Assembly (NCBI GenBank): GCA_947259405.1
Contig: CAMYLY010000007.1
Span: 1-64,000 of the forward strand
Direction of reading: 5' to 3'
Source of the DNA: an uncultured Gemmatimonadales bacterium
Lineage (GTDB): Bacteria > Gemmatimonadota > Gemmatimonadetes > Gemmatimonadales > GWC2-71-9
Length of the DNA stretch: 64,000 nucleotides
Notes under the pieces: generated by a model
The model's database searches: none
What the model was told of the DNA's origin: nothing
The model's input: the letters and a program-made list of their open reading frames with translations, nothing else
Shown: one piece after another, positions 3-55,687 of the stretch
Position numbering within the stretch: the first letter of the stretch is position 1
How the letters are laid out: the number at the start of each line of letters is the position of its first letter
Program-made: the position numbers and the translations under genes

Positions 3-245
3 CTCTTCGAGGACAACGCGCGCCGGATCGACAGAATGGATGTGGCCGCCGGCAGCCTGGTCAAGGCGTTGATCATGGAACTGGAACGCCGGCGCACGTA
101 CCTGCGCCTGCACGAGCCCGAAGCCGGCGCGCACAGGGTCGGTTACACCCTCGCCCAGGGCGACCGCCGTCAGGTACTCCGTCTCGCCCGCGCGCTCGGC
201 TTCGCCAATGCAACCGACACCACGCTCGAGGTGGGGGATGCCTAG
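3..245 (+). CDS. C-terminal part of an unrecognised protein (cut by window edge)
   Basis: An open frame enters from the left edge and ends at a TAG at 243-245, giving at least 80 residues. The visible part is Arg/Leu/Glu-rich and probably helical, with no motif I recognise. Its last codons overlap the start of the next gene, which begins at 238 behind a GAGGTGGGGG sequence, so the two are probably co-transcribed and translationally coupled. The function is unknown. Confidence 0.5.
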   Translation, partial: LFEDNARRIDRMDVAAGSLVKALIMELERRRTYLRLHEPEAGAHRVGYTLAQGDRRQVLRLARALGFANATDTTLEVGDA

Positions 246-7861: not shown

Positions 7862-7896
7862 AAAGCCGAGGCGGGAGAGATCCCGGCCTCGGCTTT
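7862..7896 (-). terminator. Hairpin terminator of RNA unit A
   Basis: Eleven-bp outer arms AAAGCCGAGGC/GCCTCGGCTTT enclose a GGGA...TCCC inner stem. The same hairpin with small compensated changes ends units B, C and E. A purine-rich tract at about 7826-7861 lies beyond it. Confidence 0.75.
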
Positions 7897-7981
7897 CTTG
7901 CGTGGCGGCAGATGCCACTGAAACATCGCAACTGTCTTAATCTAGCCCTCGCTCTTCGGTTCTCCAAGATGGCGCGGTGGG

Positions 7982-8065
7982 TGCCGACGGTGAGATTCGA
8001 ACGCACGCGGGCCGAAGCCCAGAAACTTGCGATGTTTCCGCGTCTGCCAATTCCGCCACGCCGGC
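7982..8065 (-). tRNA. Class II tRNA-like gene, Leu-type body, nominal anticodon CGC
   Basis: The folded body is exactly 84 nt: acceptor GCCGGCG/CGTCGGC (one G-U), Leu-type D arm GCGGAATTGGCAGACGC, anticodon stem GAAAC/GTTTC with loop ATCGCAA, variable arm GGGC-TTCG-GCCC, T loop TTCGAAT with one T-stem mismatch, and discriminator A. CCA is not encoded; CCCACC follows. By canonical numbering the anticodon is CGC (an Ala codon reader) on a Leu-like body. It could be a decayed or repurposed tRNA rather than a working one. Confidence 0.65.
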
Positions 8066-8164
8066 ACCACTTCGTTCGATTCGGCGGCCATGGCATTTCT
8101 GACGCGGGCCCAACGAGTCTCCATCGAAACCGCGCGCACAAGGTGTGTTGGTGAGGTGGCTAGA

Positions 8165-14476: not shown

Positions 14477-14994
14477 CCTGTCCCTCCTCACCCTGTCCCT
14501 CTCCTCTTCGAGGAGAGGGGACCTAAGGACGGTTCGCGTCGCGGACGTCCCGGACCACGGCTTCGAGTCGCTCGGCAGTGACCTCATGATTCTTCATACG
14601 TACTACTGTGTAACCCGCCTTGCGCAAGATCGCGTCACGCTCGGCGTCATGGGCCATCTGCAGAGGTTTGGTGTGAATGGATCCGTCGAGTTCGAGGACG
14701 AGCCGCAGTCTGTGACAGTAGAAATCGACGACATAACTCCCGAGTACATGCTGCCGGCGGAACTTGAGACCGAACAGCCGGCGGCTGCGGAGCAGTTCCC
14801 AAGCTCGCCGCTCTGCCGGGGTTGAGTGACGGCGGAGTTTCCGGGCGAACTCCGTGTGTTTGGTGGGTGATTTGGCCACCTGAAATGATCGGTATCCTCA
14901 GAGTGTTCCATAGCACCGAATTAGTGCGGCCGGTACTTCGAATCTGCGTTCCCCTCTCCCGTTTGGGAGAGGGGACAGGGTGAGGAGGGACAGG
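14477..14994. mobile_element. DUF559 gene bracketed by 22-bp perfect inverted repeats
   Basis: The same 22-bp sequence, beginning CCTGTCCCTCC and ending CACCCTGTCC, stands at 14477-14498 and inverted at 14973-14994. Just inside each copy is a hairpin (CTCTCCTC-TTC-GAGGAGAG on the left, CCCCTCTCCC-GTTT-GGGAGAGGGG on the right). Between them is only the DUF559 endonuclease gene. The ends are of the same sequence type as the 84-bp R1 elements, so this may be the autonomous member of that family. Mobility is inference. Confidence 0.55.
14523..14879 (-). CDS. DUF559 / Vsr-like endonuclease-domain protein
   Basis: This is a 118-residue protein. The sequence follows the DUF559 pattern: TPAERRAWELLRSRRL, then FRRQHVLGSYVVDFYCHRLRLVLELDGS, then DAERDAILRKAGYTVVRMKNHEV. 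The VVDFYC and LELDGSIH strands correspond to the restriction-endonuclease-like core related to very-short-patch repair nucleases. No partner methylase is present. Its immediate neighbours on both sides are inverted copies of a palindromic repeat, which suggests a role in spreading that repeat rather than host DNA repair. Nuclease activity has not been shown for most of this family. Confidence 0.85.
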   Translation of the reverse strand: MAKSPTKHTEFARKLRRHSTPAERRAWELLRSRRLFGLKFRRQHVLGSYVVDFYCHRLRLVLELDGSIHTKPLQMAHDAERDAILRKAGYTVVRMKNHEVTAERLEAVVRDVRDANRP

Positions 14995-15005
14995 CGGCGG
15001 CGCAA

Positions 15006-15044
15006 GAAAAGCCGAGGCGGGAAGATCCCGGCCTCGGCTTTCTT
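15006..15044 (-). terminator. Hairpin terminator of RNA unit B
   Basis: AAAAGCCGAGGC pairs with GCCTCGGCTTTCTT around a GGGAAGATCCC inner stem. It is the same hairpin as in units A and C. Confidence 0.75.
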
Positions 15045-15128
15045 GGCGTAGCGGGAGACGCTACGGAGACTTAGCAAGTACGTGAAACCTATGCTCGGCC
15101 TACGGCCCCGTGCAAGTGGCGCGGTGGG

Positions 15129-15212
15129 TGCCGGCGGTGGGACTCGAACCCACACGAGCTTGCGCTCCGAGACTTGCTAAGTCTGTACGTCTGCCAATTC
15201 CGCCACGCCGGC
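15129..15212 (-). tRNA. Class II tRNA-like gene, Leu-type body, nominal anticodon AGC
   Basis: An 84-nt body with perfect acceptor stem GCCGGCG/CGCCGGC, the Leu-type D arm, variable arm GAGC-GCAA-GCTC, T arm GTGGG-TTCGAGT-CCCAC and discriminator A. The anticodon stem CAGAC/GTCTC has a mismatch at its base, and the loop is TTAGCAA, which puts AGC (an Ala codon reader) in the anticodon position. CCA is not encoded. All other stems are well formed. Confidence 0.7.
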
Positions 15213-15313
15213 CACCACTTCCTTCGATGTCGGCGGCCATGGCATTGCGACGTGGACCTCACAAGTCTCCATCGAAACCGCGTGCACAAGGTGTGTTCGT
15301 GAGCTGTTTGGCG

Positions 15314-18212: not shown

Positions 18213-18235
18213 CTCGCACGACGGCGGGCAAAACG

Positions 18236-18270
18236 AAAGCCGAGGCGGGAACGATCCCGGCCTCGGCTTT
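18236..18270 (-). terminator. Hairpin terminator of RNA unit C
   Basis: AAAGCCGAGGC and GCCTCGGCTTT form the stem around GGGAACGATCCC. It is nearly identical to the terminators of A and B. Confidence 0.75.
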
Positions 18271-18359
18271 CTTGGCGTGGCGAAACACGCTCCTCACAAG
18301 TCTGACGATTAACCCAATCTAAACTCGGGACGATGCCACGCGCAATTGACGCGGTGGGG

Positions 18360-18443
18360 TGCCGGCGGTGGGATTCGAACCCACACGGACTTGCGTCCCC
18401 AAGATCGTCAGACCTGTGCGTCTGCCAATTCCGCCACGCCGGC
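18360..18443 (-). tRNA. Class II tRNA-like gene, Leu-type body, nominal anticodon GAC
   Basis: The 84-nt body has perfect acceptor (GCCGGCG/CGCCGGC) and T (GTGGG-TTCGAAT-CCCAC) stems, Leu-type D arm, variable arm GGAC-GCAA-GTCC and discriminator A. The anticodon stem CAGGT/TCTTG is weak (a T-T closing mismatch and a G-U), and the loop CTGACGA places GAC (a Val codon reader) at 34-36. No encoded CCA is seen. Confidence 0.7.
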
Positions 18444-18544
18444 CACCACTTGCTTCGATGTCAGCGGCCATGGCAATGCGACGCGGGCCCAACGGATCTC
18501 GATCGAAACCGCGGCACAAGATGGGTTGGCAGGCCGGTGAGTGT

Positions 18545-18739: not shown

Positions 18740-18753
18740 AACACACGGAAAAA

Positions 18754-18976
18754 GAGAGCCGAGGAAGGAGCAATCCCAATCTCGGCTTTCTCTGGCGCGG
18801 CAACCGACGCCGCTGAAACATCGCAAGCACCTGAATCTAGCTCGCGCTCGGGCGTTCACCAAGATGGCACGGTGGGTGCCGACGGTGAGATTCGTTGCGC
18901 AACCGTTAGGCAAGCAGAGCAAGCATCACGACCAGCGATGCGCAGCTCAACTCACACGGGCCGAAGCCGTGAGATG
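18754..18976 (-). pseudogene. Broken copy D of the tRNA-like RNA unit
   Basis: A decayed terminator hairpin (18754-18791), the small hairpin, an antisense segment identical in its core to copy A (TTGCGATGTTTC), and the 3' part of the tRNA body (acceptor strand and T loop, about 18877-18894) are recognisable. At 18895 the match stops for about 58 bases, then resumes with the variable-arm sequence CACACGGGCCGAAGCC (18953-18968). It then stops for good, with no anticodon, D arm, leader or promoter. Confidence 0.7.
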
Positions 18977-54183: not shown

Positions 54184-54234
54184 CGCCTTCGGGTTCTTGG
54201 TCTCCGTCGGGAGAGGGAACGTAAACGTACGAAG

Positions 54235-54271
54235 AAAAGCCGAGGTGGGTTAGAACCCAGCCTCGGCTTTT
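54235..54271 (-). terminator. Hairpin terminator of RNA unit E
   Basis: AAAAGCCGAGG/CCTCGGCTTTT form the outer stem. The inner stem TGGGTT/AACCCA replaces GGGA/TCCC of the other copies, with compensated bases. Confidence 0.75.
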
Positions 54272-54358
54272 CTGGCGTAGCAGAAGACGCTACACAAGCC
54301 TGACAAGCCTCAATCCAAGTCTAACTGTGCGCTTCGATGCCAACAATGGTGCGGCGGG

Positions 54359-54442
54359 TACCGGCGACAGGATTCGAACCTGTATGGGCTCTCGCCCGGA
54401 GGCTTGTCAGTCCTCTGCGTCTGCCAATTCCGCCACGCCGGT
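54359..54442 (-). tRNA. Class II tRNA-like gene, Leu-type body, nominal anticodon GAC
   Basis: The 84-nt body has acceptor ACCGGCG/CGCCGGT (an A-T first pair replacing G-C, compensated), Leu-type D arm, variable arm GGGC-GAGA-GCCC, T arm ACAGG-TTCGAAT-CCTGT and discriminator A. The anticodon stem GAGGA/GCCTC has an A-G closing mismatch, and the loop CTGACAA places GAC (Val) at 34-36. CCA is not encoded. Confidence 0.7.
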
Positions 54443-54533
54443 ACCGCTTCCTTCGATTCGGCGGCCATGGCATCGTGACGCGGGCCCGACAAGTCTGCAT
54501 CGAAACCGCAGGTGCAAGGTGTGTTGGCTGGTG

Positions 54534-54784: not shown

Positions 54785-55687
54785 ATGCGCAGCGTGAAGA
54801 TCTTAGCACCAATCCCGTTTGTCGCCGTCGCACTTCTCGTCGCGTGCGGAGATGCGAATGTCACGGCGCTCAATGAACTCGAGTCCGGAGTCGCGATCCC
54901 TACCGGCACTGTGGCGCTGCTGGTGGGTCCGCCCGATGACCACACGGCATGTCAGGACGACGTGGCGCACAAGCCGGGCCTCGAGGAGCCGTACACGTCC
55001 TCGTGCACGACCTGCCACGGATCTAACCTCACCGGGGATTACGGACCATCCTGCTACACCTGTCACGAAAAGGAATGGGAGGAGAGCAATCCGAACCCGC
55101 CGGTCGGCCACACGGTCGACAAGGACGGCGTGTTCCATGCGAGCGGATTGAAGGATCCGTACACCGCGTCGTGCACGACCTGTCACGGGTCGAGCCTCAG
55201 GGGTGACATCGGACCGTCCTGCTATACGTGCCACGAAAAGGAATGGGAGGAGGAGAACCCGAATCCACCGACCGGCCACACGGTCGAGAAGGACGGCGTG
55301 TTCCATGCGAGCGGATTGAAGGATCCCTACACCTCGTCGTGCACGACCTGTCATGGGCCAAGCCTCAGGGGTGATGTCGGACCGTCCTGCTATACGTGCC
55401 ACGAAAAGGAATGGGACGAGCAGAACCCGAATCCCCCAGCGGGTCACACGGTCGAACAGGACGGCGTGTTCCACGCGCCCGGGCTGGACTCCCCATTTAC
55501 GAACTGCGCGGCCTGTCACGGACCGAGCCTCATGGGAGACGCCGGGCCGTCGTGCTACTCGTGTCACGACCGCAAGTGGGAGGAATCCGTGGGAGCGTGT
55601 CGGGATGACGATGCCGACGACGAACACGACGACGAACACGACGACGAGGACGACGACGAGGACGACGACGAGGAGGAGCACCGGTAG
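54785..55687 (+). CDS. Octaheme c-type cytochrome lipoprotein with acidic tail
   Basis: This is a 300-residue protein; ATG 54785 follows GGAAGGGGGG. A lipoprotein signal (VAVALLVACGD, Cys near 21) precedes four tandem units of about 53 residues. Each carries two CxxCH heme sites: CTTCHGS...CYTCHEKEWEE three times, then CAACHGP...CYSCHDRKWEE, eight in all. Units share GHTVxxDGVFHAxGLxxP. The last 30 residues are almost entirely Asp, Glu and His (DDDADDEHDDEHDDE...). It should be an outer-membrane or periplasmic electron carrier; the tail could bind metal ions or minerals. Confidence 0.92.
   Translation: MRSVKILAPIPFVAVALLVACGDANVTALNELESGVAIPTGTVALLVGPPDDHTACQDDVAHKPGLEEPYTSSCTTCHGSNLTGDYGPSCYTCHEKEWEESNPNPPVGHTVDKDGVFHASGLKDPYTASCTTCHGSSLRGDIGPSCYTCHEKEWEEENPNPPTGHTVEKDGVFHASGLKDPYTSSCTTCHGPSLRGDVGPSCYTCHEKEWDEQNPNPPAGHTVEQDGVFHAPGLDSPFTNCAACHGPSLMGDAGPSCYSCHDRKWEESVGACRDDDADDEHDDEHDDEDDDEDDDEEEHR
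54985..55600 (+). repeat. Four tandem heme-pair coding units of about 159 bp
   Basis: Units two and three are nearly identical at DNA level (for example GGACGGCGTGTTCCATGCGA in both), showing recent internal duplication within the cytochrome gene. The first and last are more diverged. Confidence 0.85.

What the first reader, a model, noticed from the sequence alone, without database searches (positions are those of the whole stretch)
15129..15212. Leu-type tRNA bodies with Ala and Val anticodons
Seen: all four tRNA bodies have Leu hallmarks (long variable arm, GCGGAATTGGCAGACGC D arm with A14 and GG, discriminator A73) but canonical numbering puts CGC, AGC, GAC and GAC in the anticodon. Established: bacterial LeuRS relies on the body and A73 and largely ignores the anticodon. 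Inference: if matured and charged, such molecules would insert Leu at Ala or Val codons; sequestering the loop by the tail would then be protective, or the molecules act as decoys for anticodon nucleases. CCA is not encoded, and three of the four anticodon stems are imperfect, so they may never act in translation.
Basis: partly seen in the sequence, partly recalled or inferred. Interest (0 to 1): 0.78.

Follow-up and report, generated by a model that had tools for sequence, protein, structure and literature searches.

The report
Leu-bodied tRNAs paired with antisense sRNAs
This bacterial genome carries four copies of a compact RNA-only module in which a leucine-type tRNA with the wrong anticodon sits next to a tiny RNA gene whose first bases are the exact antisense of that tRNA's anticodon arm, which looks like a mistranslation-causing RNA kept in check by its own antidote.

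Summary
All four minus-strand bodies (7982-8065, 15129-15212, 18360-18443, 54359-54442) are well-formed class II tRNAs with every E. coli-type LeuRS determinant but anticodons CGC, AGC, GAC and GAC. In 55 of 55 modules collected, almost all Gemmatimonadota, a sigma70-type promoter (TTGact-17-TAnnnT) lies between the tRNA body and the antisense. The antisense therefore marks the 5' end of a separate ~75-nt sRNA gene (antisense, hairpin, intrinsic terminator). Anticodon arm and sRNA co-diverge to a different matched pair in nearly every module (own perfect match 13.1 nt, cross 5.3), while the body stays Leu-like and the anticodon stem stays paired. 56 ordinary tRNA-Leu genes lack the antisense. 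No module has a Leu anticodon; most read the genome's commonest codons. The leader is an imperfect antisense of the tRNA's 5' half. The window also holds an orphan sRNA, intact beside a destroyed tRNA body, that still matches the 7982-8065 module. Best reading: an RNA-only toxin-antitoxin-like module, a mis-sense Leu-tRNA guarded by antisense sRNA. Architecture is shown; aminoacylation, toxicity and neutralisation are inferred. I found no described counterpart.

The parts
15129..15212 (-). Leu-type tRNA body, anticodon AGC (reads GCU Ala), the finding itself
15213..15300 (-). leader, imperfect antisense of the tRNA 5' half (D arm and anticodon arm); possible cis lock
15110..15115 (-). -35 element of sRNA promoter (TTGCAC)
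   Evidence: coordinates
15086..15091 (-). -10 element of sRNA promoter (TAGGTT)
15004..15080 (-). sRNA gene: 5' antisense of the anticodon arm (15067-15079), hairpin, intrinsic terminator
7982..8065 (-). Leu-type tRNA body, anticodon CGC (reads GCG Ala)
8066..8150 (-). leader of the 7982-8065 module
7939..7967 (-). sRNA promoter TTGGAG-17-TAGATT
7862..7933 (-). sRNA gene with antisense at 7920-7931, hairpin, terminator
18360..18443 (-). Leu-type tRNA body, anticodon GAC (reads GUC Val)
18444..18530 (-). leader of the 18360-18443 module
18316..18345 (-). sRNA promoter TTGCGC-18-TAGATT
18230..18311 (-). sRNA gene with antisense at 18300-18309, hairpin, terminator
54359..54442 (-). Leu-type tRNA body, anticodon GAC (reads GUC Val)
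54443..54530 (-). leader of the 54359-54442 module
54318..54346 (-). sRNA promoter TTGTTG-17-TAGACT
54232..54313 (-). sRNA gene with antisense at 54300-54311, hairpin, terminator
18749..18829 (-). orphan sRNA gene: tRNA body reduced to a damaged T arm and 3' acceptor strand, but promoter (TTGGTG-17-TAGATT, 18834-18862), antisense (18815-18827, 13/13 match to the CGC module's anticodon arm), hairpin and terminator intact

Best explanation
Each locus is an RNA-only, toxin-antitoxin-like module of two RNA genes. Gene 1 is a full tRNA-Leu body whose anticodon was changed to read an abundant non-Leu codon. Because LeuRS does not read the anticodon, the mature molecule would be charged with leucine and put Leu at Ala, Val, Gly, Glu, Asp, Arg or Thr codons, harming the proteome. 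Gene 2, directly downstream under its own sigma70-type promoter, makes a ~75-nt terminated sRNA whose 5' end is perfectly antisense to that tRNA's anticodon arm, so it can unfold and mask the anticodon. The leader, antisense to the tRNA's 5' half, may hold the precursor in an inactive fold until processed. Matched arm/antisense pairs diverge together, giving each module its own specificity. Shown: architecture, promoter, terminator, co-divergence, Leu identity set, anticodon bias, orphan sRNA. Inferred: charging, mistranslation, toxicity, neutralisation, a trigger.
For: 55/55 modules have TTGnnn-16..18-nAnnnT between body and antisense, against 9% of 56 tRNA-Leu and 8% of shuffles; the antisense starts 5-7 nt after the -10 in 45/55. 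Terminator found in 53/55, sRNA mostly 64-82 nt. Longest perfect match own 13.1 nt, cross 5.3; duplex energy own -34.7, cross -16.8 kcal/mol. 0 of 56 true tRNA-Leu have a >=9-nt antisense and no module has a Leu anticodon. LeuRS determinants A14, A15, G18, G19, A20a, A73 invariant in 49/49, U48 in 47/49 (determinants from PMC9976931). Anticodon stem 5 or 4 bp in 56/58 despite hypervariability, stem and sRNA strands covarying; bodies >90% identical outside the arm have arms only 60% identical. Decoded codons average 38.3 per 1000 against 16.4 uniform and 35.6 for position-shuffled anticodons, none of 5000 shuffles reaching it. Leader pairs with own 5' half at -36.8, shuffled -27.6, real tRNA-Leu -26.2. 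Orphan sRNA still matches the CGC module, -29.3 against -16 to -18 for the others. No shared neighbour gene family other than common kinases.
Against: No expression, charging or growth data. U33 is C in 14/58, which usually weakens decoding. No sigma70 promoter precedes the tRNA body; only weak upstream motifs were found, so transcription of the tRNA is unproven. Trailers mostly start CCC/CCG instead of CCA. Val-anticodon bodies might be charged by ValRS. The precedent, nematode nev-tRNAs, are leucylated in vitro yet gave no detectable mistranslation (PMC4300185). Leader pairing with at least 8 arm bases is in the minimum-energy fold of only 26/52 modules. Modules are related, so counts are not independent, and most were found with a pattern requiring C/U36 and a purine at 37.
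Confidence: 0.5

Rival explanations
1. Same molecules, different purpose: regulated, tolerable mistranslation. The sRNA tunes a mis-sense Leu-tRNA so that stress or infection releases Leu misincorporation as an adaptive response; it is not an addiction module.
For: Explains Leu identity, abundant-codon anticodons and masking equally well; moderate mistranslation can protect bacteria against oxidative stress (PMC4330365, title and abstract only).
Against: Patchy distribution (32 of 395 phylum genomes), several mutually distinct pairs per genome and an orphan sRNA look more like selfish or addiction modules than a core stress response.
Confidence: 0.17
2. The sRNA is the effector and acts on mRNAs or other RNAs in trans; the tRNA-like RNA is a stable sponge or decoy that titrates it.
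For: The sRNA has a free 5' seed and intrinsic terminator, and tRNA-linked sponges are known (E. coli leuZ 3' spacer; general knowledge, not looked up).
Against: A sponge needs neither an intact Leu identity set, a paired anticodon stem, abundant-codon anticodons, nor avoidance of Leu anticodons; the seed differs in nearly every module, so no shared target is likely.
Confidence: 0.1
3. A single co-transcript in which the antisense is a cis-acting 3' tail that locks the pre-tRNA; processing releases tRNA.
For: No terminator separates the body from the sRNA, so read-through is possible; antisense distance is fairly constant, 42-72 nt.
Against: A promoter with near-ideal spacing precedes the antisense in 55/55; an orphan sRNA survives without a usable tRNA body.
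Confidence: 0.1
4. Anticodon-nuclease or phage-defence decoy: the tRNA-like RNA is bait whose cleavage releases or destroys the sRNA and signals infection.
For: Anticodon arm is the hypervariable part.
Against: Anticodons do not match the nuclease targets I recall (Lys UUU, Glu, Arg, Tyr), no defence genes recur nearby, and no match with a well-placed antisense appeared in the viral contigs scanned.
Confidence: 0.05
5. Ordinary Val/Ala/Gly tRNAs with odd bodies, charged with the amino acid of their anticodon and used for decoding.
For: ValRS and some other synthetases read the anticodon; several anticodons are Val.
Against: The commonest anticodon is Ala CGC but G3-U70, needed by AlaRS, occurs in at most 1 of 49 bodies; a dedicated antisense makes no sense for a useful tRNA; ordinary tRNA-Leu genes have none.
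Confidence: 0.05

Closest known systems
Type VIII toxin-antitoxin systems (SdsR/RyeA; CreTA)
   Same: RNA toxin with RNA antitoxin, no protein in the module; CreT also attacks decoding (it sequesters rare tRNAs, PMC8501985)
   Different: here the presumed toxin is itself a tRNA; the antitoxin is a separate sRNA with its own promoter, antisense to the anticodon arm; no CRISPR repeat or Cascade guide features were seen (not searched for specifically)
Type I toxin-antitoxin systems (hok/sok, tisB/istR-1)
   Same: antisense RNA antitoxin with its own promoter, and a structured toxin transcript that may need processing (general knowledge)
   Different: no toxic peptide is encoded; the antisense is not from the overlapping opposite strand
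Nematode nev-tRNAs (PMC4300185)
   Same: class II, leucine-accepting tRNA bodies with non-Leu anticodons
   Different: eukaryotic, no antisense partner RNA described, anticodons Gly CCC and Ile UAU, no measurable mistranslation
Bacterial allo-tRNAs and other chimeric class II tRNAs (recalled; not looked up)
   Same: bacterial tRNAs whose body and anticodon disagree
   Different: allo-tRNAs are Ser-type with 8/4 or 9/3 folds and no sRNA partner
Bacterial Y RNAs (YrlA; recalled)
   Same: stand-alone bacterial RNA with a tRNA-like part
   Different: Y RNAs lack a full Leu tRNA body and have no anticodon-specific antisense partner; no Rfam Y RNA hit in the window

Membership tests
Functional tRNA-Leu (class II tRNA) | Complete cloverleaf with long variable arm and canonical invariant bases | tested here: met
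   Rfam RF00005 41-51 bits, ARAGORN, stems paired with covariation
Functional tRNA-Leu (class II tRNA) | LeuRS determinants A73, A14, A15-U48, G18G19, A20a | tested here: met
   invariant in 49/49 except U48 47/49; list from PMC9976931
Functional tRNA-Leu (class II tRNA) | Leu anticodon (NAG, UAA, CAA) | tested here: not met
   0 of 55 modules
Functional tRNA-Leu (class II tRNA) | CCA-ended and leucylated in the cell | not testable with these tools
   needs tRNA-seq or charging assay
RNA-only toxin-antitoxin (type VIII-like) | Two adjacent RNA genes, no protein needed | tested here: met
   no recurring neighbour protein family except common kinases; modules lie in intergenic stretches
RNA-only toxin-antitoxin (type VIII-like) | Antitoxin RNA specifically complementary to toxin RNA | tested here: met
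   own 13.1 nt, cross 5.3 nt; duplex -34.7, cross -16.8 kcal/mol
RNA-only toxin-antitoxin (type VIII-like) | Antitoxin may occur without toxin, toxin not without antitoxin | tested here: inconclusive
   one orphan sRNA in the window; among Gemmatimonadota bodies with non-Leu anticodons only L164 lacks an sRNA and L114 pairs with a mismatch
RNA-only toxin-antitoxin (type VIII-like) | RNA 1 is toxic and RNA 2 neutralises it | not testable with these tools
   needs expression in a laboratory strain
CreTA | CRISPR-repeat-like antitoxin RNA used by Cascade | not tested
   sRNA structure (5' antisense, hairpin, terminator) does not resemble a crRNA with two repeat handles, but no repeat or cas search was made
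Nematode nev-tRNA | Leu-type class II body with non-Leu anticodon | tested here: met
Nematode nev-tRNA | Nematode origin, no antisense partner | tested here: not met
   antisense sRNA in 55/55 modules; bacterial genomes

The most novel reading that the evidence does not exclude
A toxin-antitoxin class in which the toxin is a genuine, aminoacylated mis-sense tRNA: LeuRS's blindness to the anticodon lets evolution retarget the anticodon freely, and a tiny antisense sRNA tracks each change, giving several mutually distinct modules in one genome.
Probability: 0.45. Interest if true: 0.95.

Novelty: categorically new. Interest (0 to 1): 0.87.

Why it matters
No described system that I found pairs a tRNA gene with a dedicated antisense sRNA against its own anticodon arm. 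If the inferred function holds, it is a toxin whose poison is the genetic code itself: a tRNA that makes ribosomes put leucine at common Ala, Val or Gly codons, silenced by 15-20 bases of antisense. That would show mistranslation used as a selfish, addictive or defensive device in bacteria, give a natural set of mis-sense tRNA/antisense pairs of matched specificity, and make directly testable how much mistranslation a bacterium tolerates. Even without toxicity it is an unannotated two-RNA family in which the anticodon arm is hypervariable yet under three-way pairing constraint.

Tried and rejected
A cis-tail-only reading was dropped when the -10/-35 pattern appeared in alignment A2 and in 55/55 modules. 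A first anticodon tally gave spurious CAA/TAA 'Leu' modules because the D-loop pattern was greedy; with the frame corrected none remained. Matches L053, L076 and L138 with 8-10 nt antisense at odd distances were removed as chance. A conserved neighbour gene was sought and not found except common Ser/Thr kinases. A sigma70 promoter upstream of the tRNA was sought and not found; GRTKAC near -108 and ATCnTG near -82 are enriched but weak. Mobile carriage: no module-length match in plasmids or phages; viral contigs held pattern matches but none with a well-placed antisense. Occurrence outside Gemmatimonadota is rare: 1 of 247 genomes of one phylum and 1 of 246 of another in pattern searches. Paper searches found no description, but the library lacks most subscription journals and preprints. 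No tRNA isotype model was available.

Full report
Check of the observation. The window holds four tRNA-like genes, all on the minus strand, with anticodons CGC, AGC, GAC and GAC; all four are accepted by the Rfam tRNA model in the whole-genome search, at 41-51 bits. Their bodies are of Leu type. The same genome has ordinary tRNA-Leu genes with TAG, CAG and GAG anticodons on other contigs. The four lie within 47 kb of one contig, and a BLAST of the whole element finds no other complete copy in the 3.06 Mb assembly, which is 61% complete. The alignment of the four shows conservation over about 350 nt: a leader, the body, and a downstream part ending in a strong terminator.

The tail is an sRNA gene. 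In the BLAST hits from related genomes, all ten further Leu bodies with a non-Leu anticodon carried 11-18 nt of perfect antisense to their anticodon arm shortly downstream, while true tRNA-Leu genes did not. A larger set was built from pattern and BLAST searches. After framing the anticodon arm correctly and removing three chance matches, 55 modules remained; the 56 true tRNA-Leu genes in the same loci had no antisense of 9 nt or more. All 55 modules have TTGnnn-like and nAnnnT hexamers before the antisense with a 15-18 nt spacer (17 in 44). A fixed scan with spacers of 16-18 finds such a site in all modules, 9% of tRNA-Leu loci and 8% of shuffles. The antisense begins 5-7 nt past the -10 in 45 of 55, where transcription would start. 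A terminator follows in 53 of 55, giving an RNA of about 75 nt: 15-20 nt of antisense, a small hairpin and the terminator. The antisense is thus the 5' end of an sRNA. No terminator separates it from the tRNA body, so read-through into a cis tail remains possible.

Co-divergence. The longest perfect match between a module's anticodon arm and its own sRNA averages 13.1 nt, against 5.3 nt between modules. Predicted duplex energy is -34.7 against -16.8 kcal/mol, and the own arm is the best of all 55 targets in 44 cases. Among bodies more than 90% identical outside the arm, the arm itself is only 60% identical, and so is the sRNA 5' end. The anticodon stem nevertheless stays paired (5 bp in 43, 4 bp in 13 of 58), and all five stem pairs show five or six pair types each. 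The register for counting sRNA pairs was set by the longest match, so near-complete pairing at its centre is partly by construction.

The tRNA looks functional. A14, A15, G18, G19, A20a and A73 are invariant and U48 nearly so; these are the determinants reported for E. coli tRNA-Leu, where the anticodon is not one (PMC9976931). A37 is kept in 56 of 58 and U33 in 44 of 58, the rest having C33. Anticodons are never Leu. Most are CGC, CAC, GAC, GCG, GCC and CTC, reading codons that rank among the commonest in this window (GCG first, GAC second, GAG third), with a mean frequency of 38.3 per 1000 against 16.4 for a uniform choice and 35.6 for anticodons shuffled position by position. Part of the C36 preference reflects the search pattern, but a search with no constraint at position 36 in 39 mostly pre-selected genomes added only a few modules with G36. 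My inference is that C36 also avoids dependence on hypermodified base 37.

Leader and upstream region. The 85 nt before the body are an imperfect antisense of its 5' half: duplex energy -36.8, against -27.6 for shuffled leaders and -26.2 for real tRNA-Leu upstream regions. The leader also covaries with the anticodon arm (no permutation of 5000 reached the observed score; related sequences make this number optimistic). In the four window modules the predicted fold of leader plus body sequesters the D and anticodon arms; over all modules at least 8 of 17 arm bases pair with the leader in 26 of 52, against 4 of 56 controls. The tRNA has no recognisable sigma70 promoter. Motifs like GRTKAC and ATCnTG occur upstream in about 30% of modules against 3% of shuffles, so a different sigma factor is a possibility, not a result.

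The orphan. At 18749-18900 (minus) lies a copy most like the 7982-8065 module. Its tRNA is reduced to a damaged T arm and 3' acceptor strand, but promoter, antisense, hairpin and terminator are intact. Its antisense matches 13 of 13 bases of the CGC module's anticodon arm, with -29.3 kcal/mol against -15.9 to -17.9 for the other three. An sRNA that outlives its tRNA is what one expects of an antitoxin, but it is a single case.

Distribution and context. In a pattern search 32 of 395 genomes of the phylum matched, a few of them by chance, with up to several copies per genome. Organism names from the public collection put most modules in Gemmatimonadota, with single genomes labelled Acidobacteria, Planctomycetota, Deltaproteobacteria and Chloroflexi; searches of 247 and 246 genomes of two other phyla found no module outside the genomes already known. 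Neighbouring genes share no family beyond common protein kinases; the genes next to the window modules are mostly kinases, a DUF559 protein and unknowns. Plasmid and phage collections hold only tRNA-length matches.

Interpretation. The architecture is shown. The function is inferred: a tRNA that LeuRS would charge but whose anticodon is wrong is a mis-sense tRNA, and masking by a co-evolving antisense sRNA, a leader lock, several mutually distinct copies per genome, patchy distribution and an orphan sRNA together resemble a toxin-antitoxin module made of RNA alone. The nematode nev-tRNAs show that Leu-bodied tRNAs with other anticodons can be leucylated in vitro and matured, though no mistranslation was detected there (PMC4300185). 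CreT shows that small RNAs can poison decoding (PMC8501985). I found no description of a tRNA with its own antisense sRNA, within an open-access library only.

Limits. No expression data; draft metagenome-assembled genomes; related sequences; most modules came from a pattern with C or U at 36 and a purine at 37; minimum-energy folds only. I put the structural description at about 0.95 and the toxin-antitoxin reading at about 0.5.

Noticed in passing
L053:4043-4380, L113, L125, L152, L164: Leu-type tRNA bodies with anticodon TGC (Ala) but no antisense sRNA, in Azospirillum (two in tandem, CCA encoded), Desulfovibrionaceae, Chloroflexi, Zixiibacteriota and one Gemmatimonadota record; apparently a separate class of body/anticodon mismatch.
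   Followed up: no
L094, L095, L117, L149: Leu-type bodies with a GTC (Asp) anticodon and no antisense sRNA in Lysobacter, Alphaproteobacteria, Chloroflexi and Planctomycetia records.
   Followed up: no
window 14523-14879 (-): A DUF559 (endonuclease-fold) gene lies directly downstream of the 15129-15212 module on the same strand.
   Followed up: partly
L277 (G036:C96) 60-409: Two Leu-type bodies 319 bases apart with different odd anticodons, suggesting local duplication followed by divergence.
   Followed up: no
window 54984-55487: Three tandem 168-nt repeats (77-84% identical to the first) inside a cytochrome-c-like gene.
   Followed up: no
positions about -108 and -82 upstream of module tRNA bodies: Enriched GRTKAC and ATCnTG motifs at fairly constant positions, possibly an alternative-sigma promoter.
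   Followed up: partly
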